Position numbers and translations under genes: made by a program. Source: Yponomeuta sedellus (Eukaryota > Arthropoda > Insecta > Lepidoptera > Yponomeutidae). From it: DNA of 64,000 bases. The stretch is taken from positions 18,365,878 to 18,429,877 of the forward strand of contig OW203740.1 in NCBI GenBank assembly GCA_934045075.1. The letters run 5' to 3'. This document shows positions 2,218-61,111 of the stretch, in pieces (the first letter of the stretch is position 1; each line of letters begins with the position of its first letter). A model generated the notes under the pieces. The model made no database searches, had not been told where the DNA came from, and was given only the letters and a program-made list of their open reading frames with translations.

Positions 2218-2223
2218 CTCCAA

Positions 2224-2893: not shown

Positions 2894-3043
2894 TTCACGG
2901 TGTATATCAACAACCGCAAGCACCGTACTGGCGAGCGGGTGGAGGTGGCCATCTACGGAGAGCCGGGCGCTTATGTGGGACTCTCGGCTATTGACAACGC
3001 TCTCTACACCATGCAGGCTGGCAACGAGCTTTCCTATGCCAAG
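2894..3043 (+). CDS. Mcr: Mcr exon (bait region/MG6 start)
   Basis: Acceptor CAG at 2891-2893, donor GTGTGT at 3044; 50 whole codons. The block GEPGAYVGLSAIDNALY matches the family G-x-PGSYVG-x-x-A-x-D pattern that begins MG6. The last 14 codons plus donor seed a 42-bp tandem array in the following intron. The preceding exon is not visible; element A lies upstream. Confidence 0.85.
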
Positions 3044-6000
3044 GTGTGTATGACAGTAACTGGCGACCAGCTTATTATGCCAAGGTATGTATGACAATAG
3101 TTTGCAACGAGCTTTTGTATGCCCAGGTGTGTATGACAATAGTTGGCAATGAGCTTTCGTATGCCCAGGTGTGTATGACAATAGTTTGCAACGAGCTTTC
3201 GTATGCCCAGCTGTGTATGCCAATAGTTGGCAACGAGCTTTCGTATGCCAAGGTGTGTATGACAGTAACTGGAAACGAGCTTTCATTTGCAAAGGTATGT
3301 ATGGCAATAACTGGCAACGAGTTTTGGTATGCCAAGTTATGTATTAATTACAGTAATTGGCAACAAGCTTCATATGCTAAGATATGTATGACGGTAACTG
3401 GTAACGAGCTTATGCTAAGGGGCTGATGAAGTCAGGGGATGGAAGAAAAAAAGAAGGAAAGATAGAGAAGGGAGAGTTGTAACGTCTTTAGCATTGATGA
3501 AGTACACCGGGTCATTTAGTATTTTCATAAATATATTGACTTGCAACTGTTATGATATTATTAACATTCACACCTCGGCCGCGCAGGTGATATCGAAGAT
3601 GTCCCGTTTCGACGAGGCCACCAACGGTACCTTCGCGTACACGTGGCGCTCGCACCTCGGCGTGGCAGACGACCTCGTCTACTTCCCCTCCTCCACCTTC
3701 GGCATCGACGCCAACCGGACCTTCGAGTGAGTACACACATACTGGACTGGCTGGACACACACACCGACCGACCGGACCATAGAGTGAGTATACACATACT
3801 GGACAACTGACCAGACTGGTCACGGGTAGACTGAAGTGACGATTACACACACATACAGCTGTTTCTCTCAATGTATGAAATGCATTCTTCCGTCACCACT
3901 ATACACGTTGTACGCTCAGCGTGGATACTACTGTAATGCACACACACATACACACACACTCACACACTCACACATACTTTTAAAGTTGGCAAATCTTGAT
4001 TGGTTTTAATTATAATGCTGCTATATTTATGCTATAGTACTATATTTAATATGATAGGTAAAATTGAAAACGCATGTATTTGTACGTTGTCGTGGTATAT
4101 TTTTACTAATTACGAACTGCCTATTTGTGGTCGTCTGTTATTGGCCCTGTGAACTGTATTTTTATTATTGTGATCGAATAATTTGTCTTCGTTGTTGATG
4201 TCCTTAATAAAATAAATGCTTGTATGTGTTTTTCTATTCTTAACTAGCTGACCCAGCGAACTTCGTACCGCCTACCATCGATTCTTTAAGTTTTTTATAT
4301 TTTCTCTCCGTAAGGACCATCCTCGCACTTCAAGAAATATTCTAAAAAATAATGAGCGATATCAGTTCAGCTGCTCTCGAGATTTGCGCTTACCAACACA
4401 TTCGGCGATTAATTTTTATATTATAGAAGGTGAACAATTAAAATTTCCTTTCGGCCGCCATGGCAACTAAACTTCGCAAACTTCGCAACCGGTTGTGAAA
4501 AAGGAATTTTTATTCTTTGTCGGCAGCTAGTTGCGAATAAAAATTTTTTTTTCTTTATGATGATGCCTTCCATGCCGATTTCGGCAACGGCGACCAATTC
4601 TGTTTTGTGTTACTGGTGCGTCCTCACATGACTAATGTAACCAATTTTTGCAGTAAACGTCCGAAGACAGGTGCCACATGTGAGGACTCCATTTACATAA
4701 TTGTACAAAATATTCGAAGGCGCTTTATTTTTTAAATGTTCTTTATACGCAACTACAGTGCGTTCACATGAACTTGACGCGTGAGAGAATTGGTAACAAG
4801 GACATAGCATGTGAATTAGCTTTTGGACCTAATCGGAAGATGGTAAAACAAGCCCTCAATCCTTTTATTTTCCCCAAGTAATGGAGATGATTTCTTATTT
4901 AACATGTTAACAGTAAACATCTCAGTGGTACGAATTCTCTCACGCGTCAAGTTAATGTGAACGCACTGTAGTTGCTAACGAGGTATTTTTCAATAACACT
5001 TTGATCCGTGAGCAGGTACGCGGGGCTGGTGGTATTCAGCGACCTGGCGGTGACGCGGCGGCACTCGCTGTGCAACGCGTCGCTGGCGCTCGGCGAGTGC
5101 CTGCAGGGCGGCTGCTACCCGCTCAGCAAGCGCTGCGACGGCGCCTTCGACTGCCCCGACCGTACCGACGAGTCTAACTGTGAGACTATTCGTTCATTCA
5201 TTCATTCATTCATTCATTCATTCATTCATTCATTAAACCTCATAGTTCCTCGAAGTTTCTCAACAACCCTGCTTGTGAAGTCGAGTCAAATCGACTTTAC
5301 AGACAAATATGGAATTACAACCGAAGGTCTCGGGTTCGATTCCCGGCCGGGTCAAACTAGGGAACGAACTTTTCTAGTTTGTCTCGGGTCTTGGATGTTA
5401 ACTATGTATTTATTGTATTAAATCTATCGTCGAGTTAGCACCTATGACACAAGTCATTTAGTTGTACTTAGTATAGGGCTAACGAGATCTGTGTACATAT
5501 TACACAGATCTCGTGTAATATGTGCACAGTGCATCGTGAAATATTCTATGAATATTTCGATATCAAATCGATATCAACCCTTGTATGTCCCCACTGCTGG
5601 GGCACGGGTCTATTCCTGCATCGCAGGAAGGTTAGGCCATACTCCACCACGGGGGCCAAGTTCGGGTTGGTGGATGATTTTAAGACAGTGGCGGGTCTTA
5701 CTGTCAGAAGTTATCAAGCCGCCCATAAGGCCTCTGACATGGCTTAACGACTGCCATTACATGACAGCCGGCACCAACGGCTTAACGTGCCTTGCGAAGC
5801 ACGGAAGCGCTCGGAAAAAAATGCCACTAGCGGTAGTCACGGGACGGTCACCCATCCCGCACCTGACCGCGCCTGTTGTTGCTTAACGCAAGTGATTGAT
5901 TCCAATCACTCGGTTTGACTAGGCCACGAGTGCTTCCTTCATGAATATTTATTTATTTATGATTAAGTACGTTGGCTTTCAGTCAGAATCGACCCCCAGA

Positions 6001-9000
6001 CCTCTATTTCAATAGTCAAGCGTGTCAACGTTATACCGTCAAGGCGTTCAAATATTGGCTGTCGACGCTGACCAGTCGCAATCTTTTGTCACGCAGGCGA
6101 GCACGACACGTCCTTCGAGCTGGCGCACTTCCGCAAGTTCCGCTTCAACCGCGTGCAGCGGCAGTACGACAACGTGTGGCTGTGGCGCGACGTGAACATC
6201 GGCCCGCACGGGCGATACGTGTTCGCGGTGGACGTGCCGCGGACGCCCGCGCAGTGGACCGTGTCCGCCTTCGGCATGTCGCCCGAGCGCGGGCTGGGGC
6301 TAGTGCGGCACACGCAGCAGGTACTGTGACACACGGGCCGCGCAGTGGACCGTGTACTGTGACACACGGGCCGCGCAGTGGACCGTGTACTGTGACACAC
6401 GGCCCGCGCAGTGGACCGTGTACTGTGACACACGGGCCGCGCAGTGGACCGTGTCCGCCTTCGGCATGTCGCCCGAGCGCGGGCTGGGGCTAGTGCGGCA
6501 CACGCAGCAGGTACTGTGACACACGGGCCGCGCAGTGGACCGTGTACTGTGACACACGGGCCGCGCAGTGGACCGTGTACTGTGACACACGGCCCGCGCA
6601 GTGGACCGTGTACTGTGACACACGGGCCGCGCAGTGGACCGTGTCCGCCTTCGGCATGTCGCCCGAGCGCGGGCTGGGGCTAGTGCGGCACACGCAGCAG
6701 GTACTGTGACACACGGGCCGCGCAGTGGACCGTGTACTGTGACACACGGGCCGCGCAGTGGACCGTGTACTGTGACACACGGCCCGCGCAGTGGACCGTG
6801 TACTGTGACACACGGGCCGCGCAGTGGACCGTGTACTGTGACACACGGGCCGCGCAGTGGACCGTGTACTGTGACACACGGGCCGCGCAGTGGACCGTGT
6901 ACTGTGACACACGGGCCGCGCAGTGGACCGTGTACTGTGACACACGGGCCGCGCAGTGGACCGTGTACTGTGACACACGGGCCGCGCAGTGGACCGTGTC
7001 CGCCTTCGGCATGTTGCCCGAGCGCGGGCTGGGGCTAGTGCGGCACACGCAGCAGGTACTGATAGCTTTTCTTTGCTGCGTTTTGACGTATTGTTTCCCT
7101 TGGCAGCGTCTTGACGTATATATTTTCTTTGCAGTACACGGGCGTGCTACCCTTCTTCATCAAAATGATTTACAATTATAAAAGTTTTATACAGCATACC
7201 GACGTATAACTCCCCCGCAATACACGGGCGTGCTGCAAAGTTACCTACAAGCACGACAGTTTAGTCCCCGCAGTACACGGCGTGCTGCCGTATTAAACAG
7301 TTTGTCTTGACGCGTCGGCCCCCGCAGTACACGGCGTGCTGCCGTGTTATACAGTTTCTCTTGACGCGTCGCTCCCCGCAGTACACGGGCGTGCTGCCGT
7401 GTTATACAGTTTCTCTTGACGCGTCGCTCCCCGCAGTACACGGGCGTGCTGCCGTGTTATACAGTTTCTCTTGGCGCGTCGCCCCCCGCAGTACACGGGC
7501 GTGCTGCCGTGTTCTACAGCAGTCTGACGTCTAGCTCCCCGCAGTACACGGGCGTGCTGCCGTGTTCTACAGCACTCTGACGTCTAGCTCCCCGCAGTAC
7601 ACGGGCGTGCTGCCGTGTTCTACAGCACTCTGACGTCTAGCTCCCCGCAGTACACGGGCGTGCTGCCGTGTTCTACAGCACTCTGACGTATAGCTCCACG
7701 CAGTACACGCGCGTGCTGCCGTGTTAAACAGCACTCTGACGCGTCGCCCCCCGCAGTACACGGGCGTGCTGCCGTGTTATACAGCACTCTGACGTATAGC
7801 TCCCCGCAGTACACGGGCGTGCTGCCGTGTTCTACAGCAGTCTGACGTCTAGCTCCCCGCAGTACACGGGCGTGCTGCCGTGTTCTACAGCACTCTGACG
7901 TCTAGCTCCCCGCAGTACACGGGCGTGCTGCCGTGTTATACAGCACTCTGACGTATAGCTCCCCGCAGTACACGGGCGTGCTGCCGTGTTAAACAGCACT
8001 CTGACGTATAGCTCCCCGCAGTACACGGGCGTGCTGCCGTGTTATACAGCACTCTGACGTCTAGCTCCCCGCAGTACACGGGCGTGCTGCCGTGTTATAC
8101 AGTTTCTCTTGACGCGTCGCCCCCCGCAGTACACGGGCGTGCTGCCGTGTTATACAGCACTCTGACGTATAGCTCCCCGCAGTACACGGGCGTGCTGCCG
8201 TGTTAAACAGCACTCTGACGTATAGCTCCCCGCAGTACACGGGCGTGCTGCCGTGTTATACAGCACTCTGACGTCTAGCTCCCCGCAGTACACGGGCGTG
8301 CTGCCGTGTTATACAGTTTCTCTTGACGCGTCGCCCCCCGCAGTACACGGGCGTGCTGCCGTGTTATACAGCACTCTGACGTATAGCTCCCCGCAGTACA
8401 CGGGCGTGCTGCCGTGTTATACAGCACTCTGACGTCTAGCTCCCCGCAGTACACGGGCGTGCTGCCGTGTTATACAGTTTCTCTTGACGCGTCGCCCCCC
8501 GCAGTACACGGGCGTGCTGCCGTGTTATACAGCACTCTGACGTATAGCTCCCCGCAGTACACGGGCGTGCTGCCGTGTTATACAGCAGTCTGACGTCTAG
8601 CTCCCCGCAGTACACGGGCGTGCTGCCATTCTTCATGCGCGTGGAGGGCCCGGCGCGCTGCCGCCAGGGCGAGCAGCTCGGCCTGCGCGTGGCCGTGTTC
8701 AACTACCAGGCCAGCGCCATCGAGGCCGTCGTGGTGCTGGCCGCCTCGCCCGACTACAAGTTCGTGCACGTCGAGGAGAACGGCATCGTGAGTACACTCT
8801 CCCGCGCTTGAAAAAATCTTAATTAAGCGCCTAATAAAATTGACACATTACGTATCTGTGTTCAATTTTATCACCTCATTAGTTATGGCGTGCATTGTTC
8901 ATGAAGTAATGAAGACTTTAGAAATGTATATTAATTACGTCTTATAATGATTAAGTGAGTACCAAATTAACACAATTTTATGCTTTTAAGAGAAAAGAGA

Positions 9001-12000
9001 AGGTACGAAACTTTCAAGCGGTATGCCATGTTGGTTTTAAAAGGGCCCAGCTGGGCCGAAATTAAAAGTTGATTCGAATGGTCACATAGTAATTTCCAAA
9101 AATGCATCTCGGTTCCACGCCCCAAAAATTGAGCGGGACACCAGTGTCTTAAAGCCATTATTAATTAAGAATTGCAACTTTTTAGAGTAAACAATTAGTT
9201 TTAAGTATAAGTAGACGTAAATAAAAAAAAATAATAGTTAAGAAACGTTGTTCCATAAAATGTGCGAACATTTTAATACTGCTTCTAAGTCAGTCAAAAC
9301 AATGACCTCCGGCACGCACGGTTCACAAATATCTTTCTAATTAAAAACAACGCATGATTTTGCACACTCACGCGATCTCAAATACCTCTAAGCGAAACAA
9401 ATGTATAAAGAAGCCATAATTTATCCATAAATAAATTAGATTAACTTTGAAATTTATTTAACTATTAATATTATTTAAGGAATTAGCTTCCTCGGTCAGG
9501 CCTCCACCCGTTACCTCCATTCTTCTCTGTGTCTGGTTTGTTTTGTTCAGTTTGGATTACATCCTTGTTTTGAGGTATCTTTCCATGTTTTCCTTTTTTC
9601 CAACTATTCTTTATCCATCTCGAAGATCCCATAACATATAAGTTAAGGCGCTTCGGGCTGCAAATAGCGCCACCAAAAAACATAACGTGTTTTATAATAC
9701 GTTTTTATCTAAAAACTAGGTGACCCAGCGAACTTCGTGCCGTCTAACAGTCGATTCATTAATTTTTGTATAATTTTCTCTCCGTAAGATCCTCGTACTT
9801 CAAAGAATATTCTAAAAAAGAATTAGCGAAATCGGTTCAGCTACTCTCGAGATTTGCGCTTACCAACACATTTAGCGATTCATTTTTATATTATAGAAGA
9901 TTAACATGAGAAATTTAACAACTGTGACATCTATTTTTAGTACCTCCAGTCTAGGACCTAGAACTATCATCTAATTCAACCATCTAAATCACTTGTGAGC
10001 CTGAGTATGCCTCGTGTTAGAGGCGAAACGCGTCGCGCATTTTTTCACACAAGTAGTGGTGGTGGTGTATTCGTGTCTTGCTTCTGCTTGAAAAAGTAGG
10101 AGGGAGGGCGGTGCATCTAACCGCATGGTGCTTATGGGAATTTTGACAGAATTAAGCAGTCGTTTTCACATATCAATTTCCGCCAAATTCGGCCGTTACA
10201 GCGGAAATCGATTAAATCCCTTGGTTTTTGATTCTAGGTTCGACTGTAGGTTCTACTTGTTACAGTTGGTAAGATTTGTCATGATCATCATTGGATACAC
10301 ACGTGGCGTTATAATAGTACATTACACAACTAGGGTGGTAATACAAAGAAAGGCCGAGATCGCAGAAGTTTGCGGCCCGAGGTGCAAGCGAGGGACGTAA
10401 ATATGCGATCGAGAGCTTTCTTTATTACCTCCCGTGTTGTGTACATCTTTTTATGTCTACACTTGGCCAGAAAGTGGCTTTTTCCGTACGCGCAGCGTGC
10501 GGAAAAAGCCACTTTATTGCCAGGTGTGGCATAAAACAAGTTATAATTTCTTTCCATTGGTGGCGCTAGTTAGCAGCCCATAGCTCCTTAATCTCAAATC
10601 TCCTCTGTACTGTATATTTATAATTATTTTTTAATACAGTTGCTCAAAAAGTGGCGTATTACAGGGACGTATAGCATGTGGGATGTGGGCTTTTACACAC
10701 TCGTGCTTTTTTTTACCTTTCCCGCACTCGTGCGTTTTCTTTCCCAACTGTCAAAATAATGTCTATTAAAAAGAAAAACCAACCATGAAGTTTTTACTAA
10801 AAAAAATCATATAAGTTTTTGTGAGCTACTAATTTGTTTCAATATCAGATTTAATGATTTGATTGAATGATTTAAGTTAGGTTTCATTTCATTTCATCAT
10901 TAAATTTCATTTTCATTTCATATCAATAAAAAAAATTCTACTGAAGACTTGGCTGTATGGGCATAGTTCCCTTTGCCTACTAGAATGTGTGAAAAAACAA
11001 ATCTCTGCTTATATTTTTTTACGGTTGGCGCCATTTTCCAAATATTTTTTCTTTATTAAATTGCTTTTTTTTTCGCAACTGTATTAAAAATAGTCGTTTA
11101 GTACACGTGCGGAACCGTCATTGAAACTTGTTCCGACTGTCAACCCTCGCCTTCGGCTGCGCCTCGGCTCGGGTCGACATTTGTCGGAACTCTTTGCAAC
11201 GACAGCCTTTCCGCACTTGTAATGAAATATACTATTATGTTTGTTTTTTTCCTGGTGCACAGTAAAGAATATTCTTATGTTATATCCTCCACTCCGTAGG
11301 TCCGCTCCTACAACCCGCGCACGTCGTTCGGCGAGCACCAGTTCTTCGTGTACATCGCGGCCGGCGACGCCGCCACCGTGCACGTGCCCGTCGTGCCCAC
11401 GCGGCTCGGGCACGTGCACGTCAAGTTACACGCCTCCACGCTCATCGGGACCAACCGCTACACGCACGCGGTGCTGGTCGAGGTGAGTGACGTCAGGTTA
11501 CACGCCTCCACGCTCATCGGGACCAACCGCTACACGCACGTGGTGCTGGTCGAGGTGAGTGACGTCAGGTTACACGCCTCCACGCTCATCGGGACCAACC
11601 GCTACACGCACGCGGTGCTGGTCGAGGTGAGTGACGTCAGGTTACACGCCTCCACGCTCATCGGGACCAATCGCTACACGCACGTAGTGCTCGTTAAGGT
11701 GAGTAACTGACGGAGCTCAGTCCTGAGCCTCGATCCTGGGTTCGAGTCCCGGCATGGGTGGAATTTTTAGCCTCTAAATAGGTTTTTTAAAAGGTGTTTA
11801 ATTATTTTAATTAGTTATCACGTTGTGTCTGCAATATGATATTTTAGTGGACAAATGATTTTATATTGCTTTTATTTATTGTTTGTTTTAAGACAACAAA
11901 TGAATTTAAGTTGTTTGTTTGTTGGTTTTTTAACAGGCGGACGGGCTGCCGCAGCACCGGCACCAGTCCCTGCTGCTGGATCTGTCCAACCGCGCCTACG

Positions 12001-14920: not shown

Positions 14921-15016
<96 letters not shown>

Positions 15017-30047: not shown

Positions 30048-30082
30048 GCAATAGTGATGTTTTATTTAAACATCACTATTGC
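30048..30082. promoter_or_regulatory. Hairpin over EMC7 stop codon and poly(A) hexamer
   Basis: GCAATAGTGATGTTT (30048-30062) pairs perfectly with AAACATCACTATTGC (30068-30082) around a 5-nt loop. In EMC7 mRNA it covers the last codons and stop, and the minus-strand AATAAA at 30061-30066 sits at the loop. Confidence 0.6.
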
Positions 30083-52800: not shown

Positions 52801-53233
52801 TTTGATTTTAGTAAAAAATGAAACTGGTAACAAACTACAGAGAATTTATAATGGACCTTACGAAGTTATTAAAGATGTAGCTCCAAACGTCGAAATTGCA
52901 AAACACGGTAAAATAGATTTAGTTCATAAAAATAGAACAAAATTATATAATCAACCTAGTTAAGTTGCATTTATTGTATAGTACTAAAATAAAATTAACT
53001 TATGGTTATTTTATTTTACTTTTTCGGGTAAGGTGTAATAGTATAAGAAATCTATAACCAATACGTATGTGACTCCTATTTAAGATTGTGTATCCGAATA
53101 AATGAGACAGTTATTCTCGAGCAGTCAGAACGTTTTATTGTATACAAACACCCGTCCTTACAACGTGACCATACCGGATGTAGACAAAATGTTTCGGGCT
53201 TCGGGTGCACGAACGGACGGACGGACAGACAGA

Positions 53234-53295
<62 letters not shown>

Positions 53296-56200
53296 CACCC
53301 AGGAGAAACCCCAATTACGGGTACCACCGGCTCGGGGGAGCACAGTGGTTATGTCGGACTCCCCGCCCTGAAAAGGGCGGTATACCGACTAAAACTCCTG
53401 GGGTGTTCCTTCGCACCGCAAAGGACGGGGCCACGGGAACGCTTGCGCACACTTCCGCGACCCCGTCTGCGGGCGCCCTTTCGGGCACTCCTTCGGCGGC
53501 GCTTCTGCCCCGTCGGTGCTCGACGACGGGGCTAGAAAACGCCGCATCTCTTCGTTGGAGCGCATAGGGGCCAAGTGCGTATGATCTTGGCCCCCATACG
53601 CCCCAACGCGCCGCCCCCTCCATCCCATCGCAAGCCGGTCGATGAGACGGGGAGGGCGGCGCACCTCCTCGTTGAGGCGCGTGGGGGCCCAAGCGTCCCG
53701 GTCCCCACACGCCCCACACGTGAGGCCCGTCACGTCGCCCACCAGCACTTCTCTGAAAGCAGAGAAGGCGGTGAGCGACCGCGCGGGCCCCCTCCGTGCC
53801 AGAAGGCACCCTCGGAACACGCAAGGGCGCCTTCCGGCCCGCCGTGATGGACGCGGAGAGTCCCCCGACCCTCCGCGTCCCGGCGGCCACTCTGGTCCGA
53901 CTGGTACGAGGCGCGCGCGCTTCCGCGCAGCGGCGCCCCCCCCAGTCGGTCCTTCATTCGGTTGGTCGCCTGGGTCCCGCTCCACAAAGTGAAACAGGGC
54001 CCACGCGACCCCTCCCGCCAGATTTTTCGCCGCTGGCCAGCAAGATCCCATAAAGAGAAGTTACTGACCAGCGCCCAGGGTGCACCGGCCCTTGCCACTT
54101 ACCCTTCCTACTGGTTCAAGATGAATCAGTAGGAACGGAAGCGGAAGGGCACACGGGAAGGTAATCTGGCATCGCACCCCACGGACAGACAGACCTGGCG
54201 CAACTATAAGGGTTCCCTGTTTACTACCGAACCCTAAAATTCAGTGCAACTCGCCCTAACAATATGTTTATCTACCAGCCTAAACAGAGCTCACTGTTCC
54301 ACTGTCCAACCCATCGGGTACTTTTTCAGATCTATTTCTTCGAAGTCGTATAAGTGTGTGGCGTTGATAGAACATACTTGAACTAGCAGTCAACATTTTG
54401 GATTTTGTTATATTTTTAACCGACTGAAAAGAAGGAGGTGGTCAATTTATCTGTATATTTTTTATGTATGAAATGAAAAGGTTTTATTAGCGCAGAAAAT
54501 GGGGTTTAATAAACGTTACAATTCAAACTTGGTGTCCATTTCAAAATCTAGATCATTTTTGAGAATATATGGACAGCGATCCAACGATTTTTTTTATATA
54601 GCCTCCATATTATGCGTGTTTGAAGGGCAAGAATCTCTCCCCTCTTTCAGAACAAGGCATCCATCTTTTGTGAGGCCGAGTCATTATTTTTGTAAATTTA
54701 TATTTAATATTTCATTATTAGCTCAGAATGTAACTAGTTTATTTTTATGCAATCTTATTTTTTCTTTGAGTTGGAATGTTTGAATGAATGGAATGAATGA
54801 ACACGGCCCAACTCTATCGATGTGTAAAAATTTATGAGTATTAAAAATCTATTTAGAGGCTAAAAATGGGTGGAATTTTAAAACTCTAAATAGGTTTTTA
54901 AAATTTTCCTTAGCACGGGTTAGTGCATTAAAAATAAAAATAGTAAATCATGTGGGTACAGCGATATCATTCCGATATATAGAAACCTAACTGAAAAGTA
55001 GGTACTCATGGCTGTAAGTGATGCAATTTACTTCAGCCAGATGTCGCTGCCTGTACGTAATACAGAGAATAGTGTAAAGAGGTTCGAAATTTCACTGATG
55101 CCGGTGAGTCGCCTATTAGCTCAGTTGGAAAGAGCGCTGGCACGGATAGCCAGATGTCGCGGGTTCGAATCCCGGCATGGGTGGAATTTTTAGCCTTTTA
55201 ATAGGTTTTTAATATTGTCTTTAGCAAGTGTTAGTGCATTAAAAATAAAAATAGTAAATTTATGAGTAGTATTATTTTGTAATGACTCGCGATGCTTTTA
55301 CATAGTTATATATTAAACGGGTCTAACTCTGATTATATGTAATTAATTGTATTCCCGACGCTAAATAACCGCGATTAGTCCCGTTTAATATATAACTATG
55401 AAAGAGTAGTATTATTATGATTGTGGGAAGTATGTATGTACGTGGTATGTACGTGGTATGTATGTATGTATGTATGTATGTATGTATGTATGTATGTATG
55501 TATGTATGTATGTATGTATGTATGTTGTATGTATGTATGTATGTATGTATGTATGTATGTATGTATGTATGTATGTATGTATGTATGTATGTATGTATGT
55601 ATGTATGTATGTATGTATGTATGTATGTATGTATGTATGTATGTATGTATGTATGTATGTATGTATGTATGTATGTATGTATGTATGTATGTATGTATGT
55701 ATGTATTTATGTATGTATGTATGTATGTATGTATGTATGTATGTATGTATGTATGTATGTATGTATGTATGTATGTATGTATGTATCTGGTACGTGTATA
55801 CGCAAGTACAACCACAAATACGTCAATGATGACGTATTTGTGGTTGCACTTGCGGTGTGGTGGGAATAGATGGCGTCAAACCGGCAAAGCAAATATCGTA
55901 CAGTGTGCAGCACATAATTCCCCTTAACATACGTGCACTCTGCTCTGTTACGCTATGGACGATTTTGCATAAAACGCGTTCGATAATATAGATAATATTA
56001 GGTATACTATTTTTATTTTTAATGCACTAACCCGTGCTAAGGACAATTTTAAAAAATAGATAATATTGTCAGTAAATACAGTACACTGCCTGAAGCTGAG
56101 TATCTGCTAGACCGACAGACTCAGTGTAGACTTTGTTAAACAGCATACATAGATATATACCCATACATAACTCATGCATGTATTTGGGAGGGTTAGGCAG

Positions 56201-59200
56201 AGACCGAGATTTGCCAGTAGCCGCGATCCTAAACAACACTTTCGCTTGCACGTGTTAATCGTCATCATCAACCCATTACGTCCCCACCGAGGGGCACGGG
56301 TCTCTTCCCTGAGGAAAGTATAGGCCATACTCCACCACGGGGGCCAATTCCGGATAGGTGGAGGCTAGCAAGACTAGTGGCTGGTCTTACTGTCAGATGT
56401 TTTCAAGCCGCCCTAACGACTCTGACTTGGCTCAACGACTGCCATCTATCGACGGCAGCCGGCACCAACTGAATGAATGAATTAATGAATAACCATTTTA
56501 CCCATACATGCACTGAACGTGCCCTGCGTTGCTTAACGTTCGTGATCGTTTAAGATCACTCAGGCAGCCGGGGCTACGAGCGTTTCTGATAATTTTGTCA
56601 GTATTTACAGTATACTGCCTGAAGCTAAGTGAAGAAAAAAATAATAATGGAGCGACAGATGTATGTCAGAGCCGTGGCAAGCGTTAAACTTTGGTCTCTG
56701 CCTACCCCTGCGGGATACAGGCGTAATGTAATATGTGAAGTAAATGTTATCAGTTGTGCTAGTGTTGCAACTGATAGAGTCAGGAGTTTGCTCACTTAAA
56801 TAGATTTGCATTTCTAAAGGAAGGCCAATGAGACGAAATAAAGAATATAAACAAAGTTTCAGGGGTTCTAAACATTTTTATTTGAATAAATTATAGTTGT
56901 ACAAATTTCGGATTCCTTATTCTAATCGCTGTCGTCTGTATTAGTCAAACATGATACGCCGGAAGAGTTCTAGGCTGTCTAGAGCCGTCACGCTGTGATT
57001 CCATAATTAAAACCAACAATTAATTACAATAACAGCAAAAAACAACAATAAAATTAACGGTAACGGATTAATAAACACAATAAACTTAGTAAATACGGAA
57101 ACGAAAAAATACGTATCACTTCAAACGCAATCTAAACAGGAATGAACTATTATAGTTCACAAAATAGCGGATGACACCAAATGTTGACAACTGCCGTACT
57201 GAGAGTTTTCCTGTACCACGAAATACGCAACGACAGCTGTCATCGATCAAATGACACCATTACCCCATACGTTTGACAAGGACAGAGATAATAATCGCTC
57301 ACTATCGCAATGTAACTCAGTAACGGCCCGTTTGTTTACATTCTTTATCTCGTCTCATTGGCCTTCCTTTACGTAATTTTCATGTCACCTGTGTAAATAA
57401 TAGGCCTTATGTACCGTCAAATGCCTTGAAGACCCTTCAACCTCATGTATATTGACCGCACCGTCGTTTGTGCCGCGCAGGAGTCGCGCGTGATCCCGGG
57501 CGGGCAGCTGGCGCGCTGCGCGGCGGCCGGCGACCTAGCGCCGTTCGCCGCTGCCGCTTCGCTCGCCTCATTCGACGACAGGTATTATATCTACGGCGAG
57601 GCCGTTTGGATAAACGGTATTATTGTTTGTATGTTTTTTTCATGTTCATGATGTCCTTGACTGGTTACCAAAACTCAGGGCCTACAGTTCGGCCGCTGGG
57701 AGAGTACGATCCTGAAACCTGTCTGTTTCATATGACTAGTGATGGGAGATAATCGACGTTAGCATTCCTTACGTTATTCTTAACTAGTTTTTGCCACCGA
57801 CTCATGATTTATAAGTAAATAAATAAACTAGTAGGTATGTTATGTTACTATTTGTTGCACAAAATAATAAAACATAAATTTTATTAAACGAACTTAACCT
57901 AACTGAACATAAAATAATTATATGCATTTCATCATAATTTCCTGTTATCACTTGAATATTTTTTAATTTACGCCAATTTTGCAATGCGCTTTCATTTACC
58001 AGGCTGCAACAAATTATTAGAAATAAAAGCAAATTAGTGTAAAATATAACGACTGGCACGTTATTATTTTCATTTTTTTTGGTACATCACTCCAAAAAAA
58101 ATACGGTTGACATAACCTTGTAACAGCGTAGTACGGATTTTAGGCATCAACATTAAATATTGATTTCTTATTTATTTAAAATTTAAATTACTACGCAAAA
58201 TATTACACTGATTGTAAGTTTACATAATAGTGTAGTTTCAATGATAATTATTTGCTAGTAGGACAAATAGAACTTAATTTATCGAAAATTCAACGCCACT
58301 TCAAAGTTAGGTACGTAGTCCATTCCATCGTGACCTGTCAGGATCGTATTCTCCTAGCGGCCTTACATTAGACATTAGTCTGGGACCAGGCCCTAGAGTC
58401 TAATACTTACATAGATTTTCAATAGAATGAATGATAGAAGCACGACAATGGTTGTTATTTGCCTCAATTTGGTAGTCTACAAAGCAATAGGAGTACAATG
58501 TCATTCCAGGGGTACAACCCGCGCAAATTAAATAGGCATCTCGCGCGAAGAAGATCGAAACGCGCGATCGAGACCGGCTGCCGTTGACAGATGGCAGTCG
58601 TTAAGCCAAGTCAGAGGCCTTAGGGCGGCTTGAAAACTTCTGACAGTAAGACCGGCCGCTAGTCTTGCAAGCCTCTACCAATTCGGACTTGGCGCCCGTG
58701 GTGGAGTATGGCCTATACTTTCCTCAGGGAAGAGACCCGTGCCCTTCTGTGGGGAAGTAATGTTTTGATGTCTGAAACGCTTGTACTTCTCGCAGCATGT
58801 CCGACCGCCGCTCGCTCGTGTCCGTGGCCTCCGGCGTGTACGAAGAGATCGCTGACGCGCCGCTGGTCGCTCACCGCTCAGCTGTACCGGTAAATATGTT
58901 TTACATGACGCAGCTTTAGCAAAAGGGGCACAAACACAAATTAACACTATTATCCAAAAAATATTGGAACAAAAGCTTTGCTCCAATATTTTTGCACTAA
59001 AAATGTTTTAATAACATTTTTGTAGACTTTTAGTCCGGATCTACTTACGGGTGTTGTTATATCGGAAGAGTCCGACCAGGTTTCGCTCCGATTCGCAGAG
59101 ACGGAGCTCGCGTCGTCGGTTGCTGTTGTGCTTACGAAAGTTTTAGTTCAAAAATAACATTTTTAGTGCAAGTTCTACATTATTGCAGCATATGGGTATA

Positions 59201-61111
59201 CGTTCCTATAACGGTTCTCGAAACAGTGGTGGTAGCGGAGCGGTAGAACGCCGGCTTCTCGTTCGGGAGGTCGTGGGTTCGGATCCCGGCGTAGGTGCTT
59301 TGAGTGACTTTGTTTTCTAAGCTGCACACATTTGTAAAGTAACCAATACCATTCGCTAACGGTGGAGCAAAACACCGTGAAGAGTCGTCCTGGCGTGATT
59401 TCACGAAAAAAAATGAAATCTAATTAGCCTCTAAATAGGTTTTTAAATCTAATTAGTTTTTTAGGTATTCGCATTTTTGATCTTGAAAACCCCTCTTTTT
59501 TAATTTTTCTTATATTTCTTTGATTATAGTCTATGGTATAAAAGCAATGTCACTCCAAACCTAAGTGAGATGCAAGTTTTTCATTGTTTCTTGAGTGACT
59601 GACCCACTGACCCCCTGGGTGCAGGAGGTGGAGCCGACGTACGAGTCAGTGGCCGAGTGCGTGTACGCCACCATGCGGCGCGGCAAGCGCTGCCCGCCGC
59701 CGCCGCTGCCGCCGCCGCGGAAGCCTTTTGGGTGAGTACACGGGTTGTTAGGCGAGTGGACTGGCTTTTGAATGAACTGGCTTTTGGGTGAGTGAGTTGA
59801 CTTTCGGGGAGTGGACTGACGTTTTGGGTGAGTGGACTCGCTTTTGGGTGAGTAAACTGGCATTTGGGTGAGTGGACTGGCTTTTGGACGAGTGGACTGA
59901 CTTTTGGGTGAGTGAGTTGACTTTCGGGGAGTGGACTGACGTTTTGGGTGAGTGGACTCGCTTTTGGGTGAGTGAACTGGCATTTGGGTGAGTGGACTGG
60001 CTTTTGGACGAGTGGACTGGCTTTTGGGTGAGTGGACTGGCTTTTGGGTGAGTGGACTGGCTTTTGGGTGAGTGGACTGGCTTTTGGGAGAGCTATTGGG
60101 TGGCTTTTTGGCGCGTGTACTGTTGGACGTGTTTGAATAAACTGGCTTCAGGGTGAGCGCACTCACTTATGGGTGAGTCGGGTTGAGTGTCTGTGTGTGT
60201 AAAGAGAGACAGAGAGTGAGCGAGTGAGTGAACGAGTGAGATTGATATCTACTGCAACATAAATTTAAAGTGGAAATCGGTGTAGAATTCTAAGAATTGC
60301 CTTACCAACAGCGATTAGTAAAGTACATTGTAGGAATTGAGCCCAATCGCGCCCCAGCATCCGAAGCTGACTAATCCTCGCCTCCGCTCGCAGCACAACA
60401 AAACTGGGCGAATCCTGGAGCTCGCGCCTGAACAAAGCCGCCGGCGACGGCGTCACCCGCCACAGCTCGCTCGGCTCCCTGCCGCGCTGCTGCAGCGTCG
60501 GCTCCGCCAACTCCGCTCACTCCGAGGGGTACAAGGTCAAGACGCTGCCGAAACCCGACCGCAAGACCTTCAACGTCTTCCGGAAACGCCTCAAAAGCGA
60601 CTCCAGACCCTCCGAGCCCAAGTCCCCGGAGACGAAGGAGAACCCCGACGAGACCAAAAAGAAAAAGTTCGATTTCACGCCCACCAAGGAGCTGTTCAAA
60701 AACTTCAGAAAAATCAAGAGCCTGAAGATCAAGACCGGGAGTAATCTGTCGAAGATAGGCGAGACGAAGAGCTGCGAGTTTTTGGACGAGACTGAGCATG
60801 TGAGTACTAATACTTGCAGCAGTCGGTGTTCGAAATCCGTGGAGTGTATAGAGGGGTCGACCAGCGAAGATTATCTGGATGACAGTGACGCCACGGACTT
60901 GTCGTTGGAACTCGACGATGACGCGGTAGCGTCTCTGTCTCTTCCGCAGGATATTGTAGCTCTCATACTGCGAGGCCGCGAAAGAATCGATTCCATAGGC
61001 ATAAAACAGCAATTAGCCGAGGACGACTACATGCCAATGTCGCCCATAGTTGCGCCCACGCCTATAGAACAGCACTATATCGTCATGTCGCCGAGGACCA
61101 ATATCGCTTGA
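31799..61111 (+). CDS. PH-PTB docking protein, DOK/IRS family
   Basis: Eight exons with consistent phases total 1,815 nt (604 residues): 31799-31861, 31932-32217, 37827-38028, 46444-46687, 57481-57581, 58796-58889, 59625-59731, 60394-61111. Residues about 1-115 form a PH domain (GYLEVKYPF, WKRQWCILRPSW, ending SSHEAQLWMDKVKNLL). About 116-230 form an IRS-type PTB domain (YSVSVGVTDLSQRC, LTSRLLVPWTSVRDV, then GAGTLALRTPLAPAL). The C-terminus is disordered with SH2 sites (VYEEI, PTYESV, CVYATM), a polyproline run, a basic stretch, and two YxxM motifs (YMPM, YIVM) for PI3-kinase p85. Family knowledge: such adaptors carry signals from receptor tyrosine kinases at the membrane. Size favours DOK; YxxM motifs also occur in IRS/chico. 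Confidence 0.8.
31932..32217 (+). CDS. PH-PTB gene exon 2 (PH domain)
   Basis: Starts TWKRQWCILRPSW after GTTCAG and ends one base into a codon at GTGAGT (32218). It closes with the PH C-terminal helix around the invariant tryptophan (AQLWMDKV). The frame stays open for 120 more codons into intron, which I read as chance plus repeat sequence. Confidence 0.85.
32580..32700 (+). pseudogene. LINE C-terminal fragment
   Basis: After the stop at 32580 the text encodes WPELEAAANHSQKWKSVVEA and LCSARS, then stop and GTTAAGGGACCAAAG, a pattern familiar from ends of insect LINE ORF2. Confidence 0.4.
33816..34521 (-). pseudogene. Jockey-like LINE, 3' end with reverse-transcriptase C-terminus
   Basis: The minus frame (34521-34015) has no proper start and encodes the end of ORF2 of a jockey-clade element (FHSLMSYGILLWG, LQKRAIRFIYRL, NVNTRNKHKL). 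A 200-bp 3' UTR follows and ends in ATTTC repeats at about 33816-33836. The same 3' UTR text recurs at 54470-54560, and a short bit at 3500-3560. Confidence 0.8.
35407..35798. mobile_element. MITE-like element with ACAGGGTGTC inverted ends
   Basis: ACAGGGTGTCACA at 35407 and GAGACACCCTGT ending 35798, with TATA on both sides as a possible duplication. No coding capacity. Confidence 0.6.
36691..36891. mobile_element. MITE M1, copy 1
   Basis: Ends TGTTAGCTTTTAGAATATAC and (inverted) AATATTCTAAAAGCTAACA. A second copy with the same ends lies at 44101-44277. Confidence 0.7.
37071..37440 (+). mobile_element. SINE S2, full-length copy
   Basis: Head GGTGGTAGCTCAGTGGGTAG and GGTTCAATCCTC, body AACATCGTGAGGAAACCC, AGGATGGTATAGGTGCTGGG, tail CCATCTAGTCTGAGTGGAG. 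About 370 bp, reverse of 14553-14921. Confidence 0.8.
37827..38028 (+). CDS. PH-PTB gene exon 3 (PTB domain)
   Basis: SGSALRDTYSVSV to CLLHVD, acceptor TTCTAG, donor GTACGA. The donor segment is tandemly repeated at 75-bp steps after it. Confidence 0.85.
37991..38324 (+). repeat. 75-bp array of PTB exon end plus donor
   Basis: TTGACAACACCTGCCTACTG...GTAGACAG|GTACGATA...CCACTTACAACGTTGGAGAG starts at 37998, 38073, 38148, 38223 and 38296. The first is the working exon end. The array is interrupted by element B and continues for about 35 bp at 42886-42920 (ACGATAAAGGACTCTTTGCC). Confidence 0.92.
38325..38407 (-). repeat. 3' LTR of element B (83 bp)
   Basis: On the minus strand begins TGTTATAGTGGG and ends CAAACATAATA; contains AATAAA and a TCAGTC initiator-like site. 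Exact match to 42803-42885. Confidence 0.85.
38748..42737 (-). CDS. Gag-pol polyprotein of element B
   Basis: A single 1,329-residue frame, ATG at 42737. Gag region to about residue 285 ends with an Arg/Gly-rich stretch and two Cys-rich motifs, CEKCSEWHGIHVRC and the knuckle CYRCDRMGHYAKCC. Protease active site LDSGAETSV is near 327. Reverse transcriptase follows, with YIDDLLVYG near 597, then RNase H (SVDASSYGLGA). Integrase comes next, with the HHCC zinc part (HLGIEKSKRR...CDTCQ) and the core around TDIFE and SDNGRQY. Gag and pol in one frame without frameshift or stop is a minority layout in the group. All domains look intact. Confidence 0.93.
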   Translation of the reverse strand: MSLCIQQPEPLQELGNLAVNWREFITSFDYYLVAAGNADAKSNEKCALFLHCIGKYGREISKEFDIDVSTIKYDDLIKKFENRCDPTLNVNYERHIFFETYQNNDTFDKFLSDIKIKSKSCDFGTLRESLIVTQLIRGLKDSQMREKLLARTKLNLEEATSWCRAAERASEQAAACGSAPRRGEGGSTAAPAIEEVARGSAGRRRGGRGRGRGRRPGGAADGPPAGSRYESSSQRRVNKCEKCSEWHGIHVRCPAFSVKCYRCDRMGHYAKCCRAKIVHELVDETGENCEDDDGEFLIYNISIHATDNETSASWYQSVLVNDNPVRFKLDSGAETSVMSLRSFREAGFSHDILRKTKTILKEISKHQLPVVGYFNAQLKHNDLTSEQKIFVLDVECSNLLGLNACTALKMITRINEVKQYKIDDSIFEGIGCLPNKCKISVEENASPVVNSTRKIPIKLRPRLKDELDKMEKLGIIIREEGPTDWVSSIVIVERPNNSLRLCLDPFYLNKAVRRSHFQLPTLEEIVSDLEGATYFSKLDAQKGFWMLQLDSPSSKLCTFSTPFGRYRFLRMPFGIKSASEIFHSEMAKIFQTAGVAVYIDDLLVYGKTRKEHDARLEEVIKRATKNGVKFNKEKCIFGVTEISFLGHIFDANGMRPDNNRVKAIMEIAQPNNKKELERFLGITNYLARFIPNFTDETVPLRALLKQDHEFEWCKTHEKCFNKIKEKISKAPVLRYYSPREDVTLSVDASSYGLGACLLQSGQPVAYASRTLTQNESRWAQIEKELLAIVFGCTRFHQYIYGHDQIIVETDHKPLESIFKKPLNDTPSRLQRMLLKLQAYSLKITYKPGKHMHIADALSRAPIETGSNKEIFDDVTIHVNSLLQNVSVTQDKLEVIGNETKKDESLQYIQKYYENGWPEVKENIHDLAKQYWTIRGDIHAVNGILFRNHQIIIPKSLRKELLDRVHEGHLGIEKSKRRARDVIWWPGIGSEVEQLVQRCDTCQRHRAAQRREPLEPHARPALPWQVLATDIFEIKQKHYLLVVDYYSKYFEVAPLPNLTSSMVINQLKNIFARHGIPNKLVSDNGRQYCSHEFENFASTWEFEHVTSSPLYPRSNGLAERFVQTVKRLLIKSQEQKCDWQLAFLNFRNTPIAGEEFSPSQLLMGRRLNTRLPATDNALVPKNINRDQLLIKRDTNTNKSKMHYDRGTRQLKSLQSGEKVRMRDNGVWIKAKVIGIARGDRSYWLETENGGRFRRNRAHILKQLPDNDLVDPSSRAHIYLDGPPETETCTDKPAPDVSHSGEGSTSDAFLGHYQTRSGRIVKPPKRLIVDM
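42803..42885 (-). repeat. 5' LTR of element B (83 bp)
   Basis: Identical to 38325-38407 and directly followed (minus strand) by TGGTGTCAGGTG at 42802-42791. Confidence 0.85.
44101..44277. mobile_element. MITE M1, copy 2
   Basis: TGTTAGCTTTTAAAATATAC at the left and TATATTCTAAAAGCTAACA at the right; interior differs in part from copy 1. Confidence 0.7.
44640..44935 (-). mobile_element. SINE S3
   Basis: Inverted: GTTAGAAAACAATGTCATTG, GAACCTACGACCTTCCGAAT, CCGGTCCGCTACC; and GGAAAACATTGTGGAGAAAC beyond. Confidence 0.6.
45916..46330. repeat. Two or three short LINE/Helitron-like tails in tandem
   Basis: ATTATTATGAGTATAAATGTG, ATATTATAAATGTGAAAGTT and ATATTATAAAGGCGAAAGTT begin similar blocks (with CGGATT, GAAACTTTT). 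A very common insect repeat text; family not fixed. Confidence 0.55.
46444..46687 (+). CDS. PH-PTB gene exon 4 (PTB end and low-complexity linker)
   Basis: SFGQGAGTLALRTPLAPAL finishes the PTB fold, then an Ala/Arg/Gly-rich linker with RRLSRSDGDL and EVSLDDTDLL. Very GC-rich against AT-rich flanks; donor GTGGGT. Confidence 0.85.
47296..47424 (+). repeat. 5' LTR of element C
   Basis: TGTAATAGTATAAG ... CGTCCTTACA; holds CCTATTTAAGA and AATAAATGAG. Exact match to the 3' LTR. Confidence 0.92.
47425..47439 (+). promoter_or_regulatory. Primer-binding site of element C
   Basis: TGGCGACCCTTTGCC directly after the 5' LTR. The TGGCGACC start is like sites used with tRNA-Arg; tRNA not verified. Confidence 0.6.
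47536..47862 (+). CDS. Small single-pass membrane protein ORF between LTR and gag (element C)
   Basis: ATG in AAAAATGTG context 111 bases after the LTR opens 108 codons. A polar N-terminus (about 1-35, with NGAGNSAST) is followed by a strong hydrophobic segment at about 37-57 (VMMIILALLLIAAIFFF). Next comes a Cys/His/Arg-rich juxtamembrane run (YKCYRNCHH), then a basic tail with a CSSCGNN pair and SGDDVQMKP at the end. The positive flank after the helix predicts C-terminus in the cytosol. It is neither gag-like nor a usual env (too short, no furin site, before gag). Position at the head of the genomic RNA means it would be translated first. I do not recognise it; it may be a captured host gene or an accessory factor for budding or membrane targeting. 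Confidence 0.6.
   Translation: MCNSKTERKEEVFINQNGAGNSASTEQLQYHISAISTVMMIILALLLIAAIFFFYKCYRNCHHTWINNQMLRQNLRRSFSVHRTSAPPVTCSSCGNNPRSGDDVQMKP
48031..49248 (+). CDS. Gag of element C, RG-rich, no zinc knuckle
   Basis: 405 residues from ATG 48031. The N-terminal 100 residues are a predicted coiled coil (LVKLSYEKRTLERLRGKLNE). A gag-capsid-like helical region follows to about 290 (LRQDQRSIDEFGKELSELF). The C-terminal 110 residues are an Arg/Gly-rich tract (FRGSRRGSSS, VRGRGY, FHRGRGG) in place of the CX2CX4HX4C knuckle. Such RG tracts bind RNA in other proteins, so it probably does the nucleocapsid job. The gag end overlaps pol by 71 nt; AAG TTT TTT CGT GAC TAA is the terminal run. Confidence 0.85.
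   Translation: MAEDLSIILVKLKSIRDNLVKLSYEKRTLERLRGKLNEANTVYEEYKLLIIEIEKQIASKKLSGENLTLIKKYCERVKELINFIRDFCNKTYREASTSDLKLSHSEKSKMEFDLKTALSLLPVLNNDDATTKQLIDGVEYYASILSSQQCKTNLINFVLKSRLSQAAKLKLKTSYNTVQELISDMRSILLPKKSPVALQNKLQTLRQDQRSIDEFGKELSELFMDLTISQADGKVESLNILQPLNEKQAIKRFADGLRNRRLGTIIAARNFDSLRDAIQVAIDEDTTATPTGNIMTFHRGQKSFRGSRRGSSSRAYNAPVRGRGYHNYQNRFHRGGSSTFHRGRGGNQQYGRGQSSPFRGRYTNFDRNTYQHSGRNGQINTMSGDSNTSEIETAPSTEEHKFFRD
49241..52963 (+). CDS. Pol of element C (protease, RT, RNase H, integrase)
   Basis: About 1,240 residues in the +1 frame relative to gag; the frame is open from 49178, and the first ATG is 49262, so fusion by frameshift is likely. Protease LIDTGASVS is at about 31-37 with ILGRDFL near 105. 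Reverse transcriptase follows, with YLDDLIIFG at about 466. Between TAF and RMPMG there are about 26 residues where relatives have about 10, flanked by two SGQY copies. RNase H starts QTDASNYSLGAV. Integrase has HAGIRRMYNNIK...CDKCQ, DVVGPLD and TDRGTEF. No internal stop. Confidence 0.93.
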   Translation: MTNNNNNMFYASDNMCCIQLRLDCYWQQFLIDTGASVSAIEYKHVSQLNIPIHREPYCINGIGGKLEAIGYVYLTLGTSLNTSDQLQENKFYVFESLPFNGILGRDFLKKHKAIINFKSDSISLCNSAGNIITMPIDKKKEGIKQVFILPSRSETIHYIKTDMSEECLICATELYEGVFLASTLVKPKNGMIPILVLNTTEKEICLDKIQPTFCQINEYDICSFDKCDKISADRVKKLFELLQLKHLNSEEKETIENICAKYSDIFLLPGDKLTTTNIYNHRITLKPNVEPVYTKPYRLPYSQKSEINKQISNLLNEGIIEPCQSEWASPILLVQKKKMNDISGEKKWRLVIDYRKLNNIIQDDKFPLPNINEILDSLSGSIYFTTLDLSSGYYQCELDPECRKYTAFCSGQYRVSENDSQNCKASLSGQYQMTRMPMGLKTSPNSFSKMMTIAMSGLTYEKCLVYLDDLIIFGKSLSDHNKNLLDVFGRLREVNLKLNPFKCDFLKQNILYLGHVISGDGVLPDPEKIQALKNWPVPKNVVEVVRFVAFANYYRKFIKNFAKSAYYLTRLTKKNMQFNWDENCQKCFEDLKAKIVSSPILQYPDFRENKKFILQTDASNYSLGAVICNEDKRPIAFASRNMNKSELNYPTIEKELLAIVWAVKHFRPYLYGRKFLIQTDHKPLMYLFGMRDPSSRLMKFRIILEEYDFEIEYIKGKENIIADAMSRLRITSQELKEMNGSVNVMTRSQLRKNEEDQISRSAIVTTDDRPAQPKVVEIYSKPKISVELRFTDREILNKLKSEKEIEIENKVFCFAPRRMILFINPVSQSQLTPDAFVRELKSFCEKINVHELIFERNIKYDNFTKEIVKEIKKNKDWSGPRLCILNNIKRIENKDDRRVILNDFHLLPTSGHAGIRRMYNNIKQNYFWPGLEKDVKDFIKKCDKCQKFKHSSHYVKEPMTITSTATSAMQTVFLDVVGPLDRDDNNFSYILTIQCELSKYVEAYAMVSKSAEEVARTFVSNFILRFGIPEKITTDRGTEFLSSIFKEVCKLLNITTLNSTAYHHQTIGSLENTHKNLGNYLRMQADNHMGSWSTWLSFWCFSYNTSVHTVTQYTPFELVFGKKCNIPSNLTKDKVDPLYNCDNYPLELKYRIQTAQKEARQNLVDSKIKRKLKYDQNSNSVTYNKGDLILVKNETGNKLQRIYNGPYEVIKDVAPNVEIAKHGKIDLVHKNRTKLYNQPS
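53034..53162 (+). repeat. 3' LTR of element C
   Basis: Identical to 47296-47424; preceded by purine-rich GGGTAAGG. Confidence 0.92.
53236..54180 (-). mobile_element. 5'-truncated non-LTR retrotransposon with 60-nt poly(A)
   Basis: A run of 60 T (53236-53295) is the poly(A) tail on the minus strand. The 15-bp ACGGACAGACAGACC occurs directly before it (53221-53235) and again at 54181-54195, a textbook target-site duplication. The body is strongly GC-rich, unlike everything around it, and carries a 220-codon minus frame (54051-53389). Such GC-rich 3' parts occur in R1-clade elements of moths; clade not established. Confidence 0.85.
53389..54051 (-). CDS. Uncertain ORF in the truncated non-LTR element
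   Basis: 220 codons from ATG 54051, rich in Gly, Arg and Pro (RKRARLVPVGPEWPPGRGG; TCGACGDRDAW). No reverse-transcriptase motif. High GC makes long frames likely by chance in several registers, so this may be C-terminal ORF2 remnant or non-coding 3' region. Confidence 0.3.
   Translation of the reverse strand: MGSCWPAAKNLAGGVAWALFHFVERDPGDQPNEGPTGGGAAARKRARLVPVGPEWPPGRGGSGDSPRPSRRAGRRPCVFRGCLLARRGPARSLTAFSAFREVLVGDVTGLTCGACGDRDAWAPTRLNEEVRRPPRLIDRLAMGWRGRRVGAYGGQDHTHLAPMRSNEEMRRFLAPSSSTDGAEAPPKECPKGRPQTGSRKCAQAFPWPRPLRCEGTPQEF
55105..55215 (+). mobile_element. SINE S1
   Basis: CCTATTAGCTCAGTTGGAAA, GGGTTCGAATCCCGGCATGG and the AATTTTTAGCC tail, as at 22055. Confidence 0.75.
55301..55400. repeat. 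Inverted repeat, 21-nt perfect arms
   Basis: CATAGTTATATATTAAACGG G and its reverse complement; GAGTAGTATTATT lies on both outer sides (55264 and 55405), as a target duplication would. Confidence 0.6.
55433..55786. repeat. (TATG)n tetranucleotide tract, about 340 bp
   Basis: Nearly unbroken TATG/ATGT units with only a few imperfections. All long frames here are artefacts. Confidence 0.97.
55801..55854. repeat. Perfect hairpin, 25-nt arms
   Basis: CGCAAGTACAACCACAAATA CGTCA pairs after a 4-nt loop with TGACGTATTTGTGGTTGCACTTGCG, one mismatch at most. Confidence 0.8.
56262..56585 (+). repeat. LINE-tail repeat Z, copy 3
   Basis: CATCATCAACCCATTACGTC CCCACCGAGGGGCACGGG, CATACTCCACCACGGGGGCC, GCCGGGGCTACGAGCG; divergent from copies 1 and 2. 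Confidence 0.7.
56815..57371. mobile_element. Non-autonomous DNA element with about 40-bp inverted ends
   Basis: TAAAGGAAGGCCAATGAGAC GAAATAAAGAAT at the left and its near-perfect reverse complement at 57331-57371; 557 bp, no ORF. Confidence 0.7.
57481..57581 (+). CDS. PH-PTB gene exon 5
   Basis: ESRVIPGGQLARCAAAGD to SFDD, acceptor CGCGCAG, donor GTATTA. Confidence 0.75.
58376..58540 (-). repeat. Unassigned dispersed repeat U, copy 2
   Basis: ACCAGGCCCTAGAGTC, TTTTCAATAGAATG, CAAAGCAATAGGAGTACAAT GTCATTCC mirror 24840-24990. Confidence 0.6.
58575..58760 (-). repeat. LINE-tail repeat Z, inverted fragment
   Basis: GGCAGTCGTTAAGCCAAGTC, GCCCGTGGTGGAGTATGGCC, ending just before the acceptor of exon 6. 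Confidence 0.7.
58796..58889 (+). CDS. PH-PTB gene exon 6
   Basis: MSDRRSLVSVASGVYEEIAD to RSAVP, acceptor CTCGCAG, donor GTAAAT; GVYEEI is an SH2-type phosphotyrosine site. Confidence 0.75.
59226..59400 (+). mobile_element. SINE S3
   Basis: GGTGGTAGCGGAGCGGTAGA, GGGTTCGGATCCCGGCG, GACTTTGTTTTCTAAGC. Confidence 0.7.
59625..59731 (+). CDS. PH-PTB gene exon 7
   Basis: EVEPTYESVAECVYATMRRG then a polyproline segment (PPPPLPPPRKP, an SH3-type ligand) and PF; acceptor GTGCAG, donor GTGAGT, repeated at 21-bp steps downstream. Confidence 0.8.
59732..60175 (+). repeat. 21-bp minisatellite of splice donor of exon 7
   Basis: GGCTTTTGGGTGAGTGGACT, which contains exon end CTTTTGG plus donor GTGAGT, repeats about 19 times with variants, grouped in a larger about 125-bp repeat (59790-59910, 59915-60035). 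Confidence 0.92.
60394..61111 (+). CDS. PH-PTB gene exon 8 (C-terminal tail)
   Basis: From TTKLGESWSSRLNKA to PRTNIA and TGA. Contains a Lys-rich segment (TKKKKFDFTPTKELF), an acidic segment (STSEDYLDDSDATDL) and YMPM and YIVM near the end. Confidence 0.85.

What the first reader, a model, noticed from the sequence alone, without database searches (positions are those of the whole stretch)
2894..60394. Splice junctions themselves are the units of tandem arrays, in two neighbouring genes
At least eleven exon borders of Mcr and of the PH-PTB gene are followed or preceded by tandem copies of the border itself. Donor-side series are at 3017, 3722, 6237, 11426, 16334, 18234, 21796, 37991 and 59732; acceptor-side series are at 7210 and 13217. 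Each array includes about 10-60 bases of exon plus the GT or AG signal plus a little intron, and the working exon is the first copy (donor) or last copy (acceptor). Random minisatellites would not be centred on splice sites so often. Units of 42, 33, 72, 75, 75 and 21 bp are multiples of three; 53 is not. Possible meanings: a duplication process linked to splice-site DNA or R-loops, decoy or backup splice sites, or a generator of new exon ends.
Basis: partly seen in the sequence, partly recalled or inferred. Interest (0 to 1): 0.95.

Follow-up and report, generated by a model that had tools for sequence, protein, structure and literature searches.

The report
Tandem-repeated splice junctions in moth genes
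In a moth-like insect genome the DNA at the edge of an exon, splice signal included, has often been copied many times in a row into the neighbouring intron, and protein comparison indicates that the copy nearest the exon is the working one, a pattern called 'mirages' that was known from lancelets.

Summary
In Mcr and its PH-domain neighbour, 11 of 50 splice junctions examined (9 of 24 donors, 2 of 26 acceptors) carry tandem copies of exon end, splice signal and intron; two of the 11 are weak. At all nine array sites in Mcr, 12 lepidopteran orthologues fit the exon-proximal copy, with one junction variable in length. It is not confined to this locus: 10 of 11 loci picked blind by a tandemly repeated donor word start at a coding-exon donor, 5 with good homology, and 7 of 60 donors of myosin exons chosen without regard to repeats carry such copies. 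This matches 'mirage' minisatellites of lancelets, here in an insect. Best reading: tandem duplication tolerated at exon edges because splicing keeps choosing the exon-proximal copy. A duplication process aimed at donors remains possible: donors exceed intron controls in the window and pooled, but not significantly in the myosins alone, and only one of two donor words shows genome-wide excess. Decoy, backup or coding-diversity roles are not supported: 12 of 21 donor arrays meet a stop before the second donor.

The parts
2894..3043 (+). Mcr exon M2; its donor (3043/3044) is the first copy of the array
   Evidence: open frame, orthologue alignment
3019..3411 (+). donor array M2, unit 42 bp, about 9 copies, 25 bp exon + 17 bp intron
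   Evidence: TRF and probe test
3716..3830 (+). weak donor duplication M3, about 57-60 bp, 2 copies (bounds set by eye)
   Evidence: probe score 36, null maximum 22, under threshold
6247..6999 (+). donor array M5, 190-bp unit with 33-bp sub-units; exon ends at 6320
7067..7134 (+). 28-bp repeat with acceptor-like TTTGCAG upstream of the M6 acceptor array, probably part of it
   Evidence: reading
7187..8627 (+). acceptor array M6, unit 53 bp, about 27 copies; working acceptor is the last copy, exon starts at 8611
11418..11704 (+). donor array M7, unit 72 bp, 4 copies; exon ends at 11482
13214..13618 (+). acceptor array M10, unit 75 bp, about 5 copies; exon starts at 13594 (last copy)
16300..16600 (+). 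degenerate donor array M12, spacing about 115-117 bp; exon ends at 16333 (bounds set by eye)
   Evidence: probe score 52, null maximum 20
18184..18400 (+). donor array M14, unit 72 bp, 2 copies plus a degenerate third; exon ends at 18233
21757..21976 (+). donor array M17, unit 89 bp, with further degenerate exon-end copies to about 22370; exon ends at 21795
37990..38324 (+). donor array C_3 of the PH-domain gene, unit 75 bp, 4.5 copies; exon ends at 38028
59725..60092 (+). donor array C_7, unit 20 bp, about 18 copies; exon ends at 59731
   Evidence: TRF; exon part only 7 bp, so not detected by the probe test
2894..26200 (+). Mcr (macroglobulin complement-related) exons M2-M20; 5' exons not seen in the window
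   Evidence: joined 1025-aa open frame, 84% identical to Choristoneura fumiferana Mcr over 97%
31932..61111 (+). neighbouring gene with weak PH match, exons C_PH, C_3 to C_8
   Evidence: C_4 to C_8 join into a 420-aa open frame; PH E 4.4e-4

Best explanation
These are mirage-type minisatellites. Tandem duplication and array expansion struck DNA straddling exon edges, mostly donors, in GC-rich genes. Inside an exon such an event damages the protein and is removed. At an exon edge it is tolerated, because the original exon and its splice site survive as the outermost copy and the rest becomes intron. Splicing keeps using the copy nearest the exon, the first donor or the last acceptor, as recognition across the exon (exon definition, recalled knowledge) would predict. 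Acceptor arrays are rarer, perhaps because extra AG sites upstream compete more. Shown: junction-spanning arrays, the exon-proximal copy is the conserved one, rarity inside exons, donor bias, recurrence elsewhere in the genome. Inferred: the duplication mechanism, the selection filter, the exon-definition rule and actual splice use.
For: Exon-proximal copy fits 12 lepidopteran orthologues at the array junctions of Mcr. Copies of exon far ends are rare, 1 of 171 probes, against 13 of 84 donors. Donors exceed acceptors: strict 13 of 84 v 4 of 87, P=0.021; curated 16 of 84 v 3 of 87, P=0.001. The 4 arrays lying wholly inside exons all have units divisible by three. In the myosins intron-interior probes outside junction arrays hit at 3 of 84, not significantly below donors at 6 of 60 (P=0.16), as tolerance would predict. 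Most donor arrays could not give a protein from inner copies (12 of 21).
Against: Tolerance alone does not predict more arrays at donors than in introns, yet the window shows it (7 of 24 v 0 of 41, P=0.0005) and so does the pooled set (13 of 84 v 3 of 125, P=0.0008). Junction arrays are longer than intron arrays, median 393 v 60 bp, P=4e-4. The GC part is weak: exon-end GC does not differ between junctions with and without arrays (P=0.82 window, 0.37 myosin), intron-only arrays are not GC-rich, and gene GC against array fraction is not significant by rank (P=0.11).
Confidence: 0.55

Rival explanations
1. Junction-directed duplication: transcription, R-loops or splicing-linked breaks raise the rate of tandem duplication at donor DNA itself.
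For: Donor excess over intron in the window and pooled. Triple tandem AGGTGAGT in at least 11 loci per 12,299 words, against 3 loci per 25,980 for the reversed word, P=5e-4; one of the 3 control loci is this window's C_7 array. Junction arrays are longer.
Against: AGGTAAGT shows no excess: 7 loci per 29,829 v 7 per 21,040, P=0.59, and pooled over both words P=0.088. Myosins alone: donors v intron P=0.16 strict, 0.09 curated. No G-skew (10 of 17).
Confidence: 0.22
2. The arrays have a function: decoy or backup splice sites, or a source of exon-end diversity.
For: Many copies keep strong donors: 26 further donors follow in L046 and the 12 whose scores were printed equal the first. The M7 array is open in frame through all 4 copies. 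Exon ends beside arrays in Mcr are less conserved, 0.66 v 0.84, P=0.027, and M12 varies in length.
Against: 12 of 21 donor arrays stop before the second donor; all upstream M6 and M10 acceptors found break the frame; 8 of 9 Mcr array sites show no added residues in orthologues.
Confidence: 0.08
3. Assembly artefact.
For: No reads could be examined; tandem arrays are hard to assemble.
Against: Copies within most window arrays differ from each other (TRF matches 79-98%); the same architecture recurs on many contigs.
Confidence: 0.05
4. Chance placement of ordinary minisatellites.
For: Myosin arrays alone: 4 of 14 on junctions v 12% expected, P=0.084; whole-array overlap null 4 v 5.7 there and 8 v 4.5 in the window.
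Against: Window: 8 of 15 v 5% expected, P=1.5e-7, though the window was chosen for looking unusual. Blind loci: 10 of 11 at exon donors.
Confidence: 0.05

Closest known systems
Mirage minisatellites of lancelets (Adh3, globins BflGb6 and BflGb9, troponin C, PGBD5): PMC3087553 and PMC3902484, passages read; the original Adh report is not held
   Same: Tandem units spanning an exon-intron boundary, at donors and acceptors, tens to about 160 bp, outer copy is the authentic exon, many copies keep AG/GT signals.
   Different: Here an insect; 11 of 50 junctions in one window; donor bias; no cDNA and no length polymorphism shown.
Internal tandem repeats at exon-intron boundaries of human segmental-duplication genes: PMC2812944, passages read
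   Same: Minisatellites at exon-intron boundaries, average unit 30 bp.
   Different: There they often change splicing and form new introns; here existing introns and orthologous proteins look unaltered.
Intron gain by tandem duplication of AG/GT sites (Rogers 1989; Zhuo 2007; Gao and Lynch 2009, seen only as references in PMC3087553)
   Same: Duplicated AG/GT sites are the raw material.
   Different: No new intron position was seen here.

Membership tests
mirage minisatellite | tandem unit spans the exon-intron boundary | tested here: met
   11 of 50 window junctions, 2 of them weak
mirage minisatellite | found at both 5' and 3' boundaries | tested here: met
   9 donors, 2 acceptors in the window
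mirage minisatellite | minisatellite-sized unit | tested here: met
   units 20 to about 115 bp in the window; single duplications of 334 and 348 bp in two myosins are larger
mirage minisatellite | authentic exon is the outermost copy | tested here: met
   orthologue alignment at nine Mcr array sites, one variable in length; protein level only
mirage minisatellite | normal mRNA splicing undisturbed | not testable with these tools
   no cDNA
mirage minisatellite | length instability between haplotypes or in soma | not testable with these tools
   one assembly, no reads
mirage minisatellite | concerted evolution inside the cluster with divergent edge copies | not tested
   degenerate late copies seen by eye in M2 and M14 only
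intron gain by AG/GT duplication | a new intron position created from the repeat | not tested
   intron positions in relatives could not be read; no added residues in orthologue proteins at 8 of 9 Mcr array sites

The most novel reading that the evidence does not exclude
Splice-donor DNA in GC-rich transcribed genes of this insect is a genome-wide hot spot of tandem duplication, driven by transcription or splicing itself. Tens of equivalent donors, or about 25 acceptors, then stand in a row, and the cell picks the exon-proximal one by position alone.
Probability: 0.2. Interest if true: 0.85.

Novelty: new member of a known kind. Interest (0 to 1): 0.6.

Why it matters
Mirages were described in lancelets. 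Here they occur in an insect, in conserved genes such as myosin, spectrin and a GRK, with 26 further donors beside one exon (L046) and 25 further acceptors beside another (M6). That is a natural experiment on how the spliceosome chooses between equivalent sites, and on whether exon edges are duplication hot spots or merely tolerant. It also warns that gene models at such junctions need protein or cDNA support: two myosin-head matches found by profile were themselves junction copies.

Tried and rejected
Chance alone: rejected for the window by the unit-span test. R-loop or G-skew signature: not found, 10 of 17. Frame-preserving units: 11 of 21, P=0.056. Exon-end GC as predictor: no difference. 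Sugar-transporter search: 10 matches, mostly long single frames, not used in any count. ABC-membrane search: 57 exon places, but no letters were left to fetch them. Acceptor word TTTGCAGG: 2 matches v 33 for its reversed control, no excess. AGGTAAGT: no excess by loci, and by raw matches 33 v 81 in the control, most of the 81 in one simple repeat.

Literature: searches of the held library listed no insect report of border-spanning minisatellites that I recognised from titles and abstracts; I read passages of PMC3087553, PMC3902484 and PMC2812944 only, and the library lacks most subscription papers.

Rows dropped or graded: 15 of 77 myosin matches whose DNA was not fully fetched; L056:1784 array and the L056 acceptor hit (border unresolved, kept in the strict counts); L057:2158 and L058:2702 are junction copies, not exons, but stay in the denominators. 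M3 and C_7 are only in the curated count. The listing was truncated (133 matches), so 11 loci is a lower bound.

Full report
Setting. The window is C21:18365878-18429877 of a 657.5-Mb, 57-contig assembly. Mcr exons M2-M20 were set by hand from splice signals and join into a 1025-aa open frame. The protein search returns insect Mcr/CD109; the highest identity among the full-coverage hits is Choristoneura fumiferana, 84% over 97%, so the host is lepidopteran-like (inference). The neighbour has a weak PH match and its last five exons join into 420 aa.

Observation. TRF, alignment and reading by eye place arrays at 9 of 24 donors and 2 of 26 acceptors; M3 is weak and M12 degenerate. Units hold exon, splice signal and intron, for example 25+17 bp in M2 and 50+22 bp in M14.

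Which copy works. Twelve lepidopteran Mcr proteins aligned to the joined exons show no added residues at 8 of the 9 array sites; M12 varies in length among the species (some orthologue models have gaps). The first donor or last acceptor is thus the ancestral site. Twelve of 21 donor arrays (9 window, 10 blind, 2 myosin) stop before the second donor. All 25 upstream M6 acceptors found lead to a stop and all 5 upstream M10 acceptors shift the frame.

Controls. A junction probe of up to 52 nt was compared with the adjacent 1 kb of intron, against first-order Markov resampled targets, with an exon far-end probe and an intron-interior probe as controls. Hits (score at least 40, z at least 6), window: donors 7 of 24, acceptors 2 of 26, far ends 0 of 50, intron 5 of 46, all five inside junction arrays. 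Myosin: donors 6 of 60, acceptors 2 of 61, far ends 1 of 121, intron 5 of 86, two inside junction arrays. Pooled donors exceed acceptors (P=0.021) and far ends (P=3e-6) and intron outside arrays (13 of 84 v 3 of 125, P=0.0008). In the myosins alone donors v intron is not significant (P=0.16 strict, 0.09 curated).

Unbiased exons. A Pfam myosin-head search gave 77 matches; 62 lie in fetched DNA. Curated donor copies, 7 of 60: a 67-bp array of about 26 copies and a 72-bp array in one gene, a 129-bp array, single copies 334, 348, 171 and 518 bases downstream. One acceptor has a perfect copy 154 bases upstream.

Genome-wide words. Triple tandem AGGTGAGT: 133 matches, at least 11 loci; reversed control 7 matches in 3 loci although that word is twice as common. 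Ten of the 11 loci start at an open coding exon with a donor at the array's first copy: 5 have homology at E below 0.001 (alpha-spectrin, GRK5/6, MKK7, GBF1-like, Nup54), 2 are weak (SPRY 0.12, 7tm 0.01), 3 rest on frame and acceptor; L045 shows no exon. Against this, AGGTAAGT and the acceptor word show no excess.

Interpretation. The kind is known: lancelet mirages. The best reading is tandem duplication filtered by selection, with splicing choosing the exon-proximal copy. The curated donor arrays all lie in genes with exon GC of at least 0.55 (16 of 61 v 0 of 25, cut chosen afterwards; rank correlation over 15 genes not significant, P=0.11). Exon ends beside arrays in Mcr are less conserved (0.66 v 0.84, P=0.027), which fits tolerance or array-driven change. 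A directed process stays open: it would explain the window's donor excess and the longer junction arrays, but the unbiased sample does not demand it.

Limits.

Noticed in passing
38748-42740 (-) and 48025-52963 (+): Long retrotransposon polyprotein-like frames (gag, reverse transcriptase and integrase-like by eye) inside the large introns of the PH-domain gene.
   Followed up: no
646-2253 (-): Gag-like frame with zinc knuckle that carries its own 54-bp tandem repeat at 1614-1816.
   Followed up: partly
30076-30804 (-): EMC7 gene (Pfam E 1.2e-37) between the two genes.
   Followed up: partly
46489-46584: GC-rich 36-bp repeat inside exon C_4; with three arrays in myosin locus L071 the 4 exon-internal arrays all have units divisible by three.
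   Followed up: partly
L057, L058, L064: Three different myosin genes carry the donor copy at about the same protein position, after the conserved FNxxxFxLEQ stretch; coincidence or shared cause unknown.
   Followed up: no
16300-16333 (exon M12 end): The only array junction of Mcr where lepidopteran proteins differ in length; possibly a trace of shifted exon ends.
   Followed up: partly
62271-62551: 28-bp unit repeated 10 times downstream of the second gene, not at a known junction.
   Followed up: no
C21:18477273-18477318 (-): One of only two triple-acceptor-word arrays in the genome lies 47 kb past the window.
   Followed up: no
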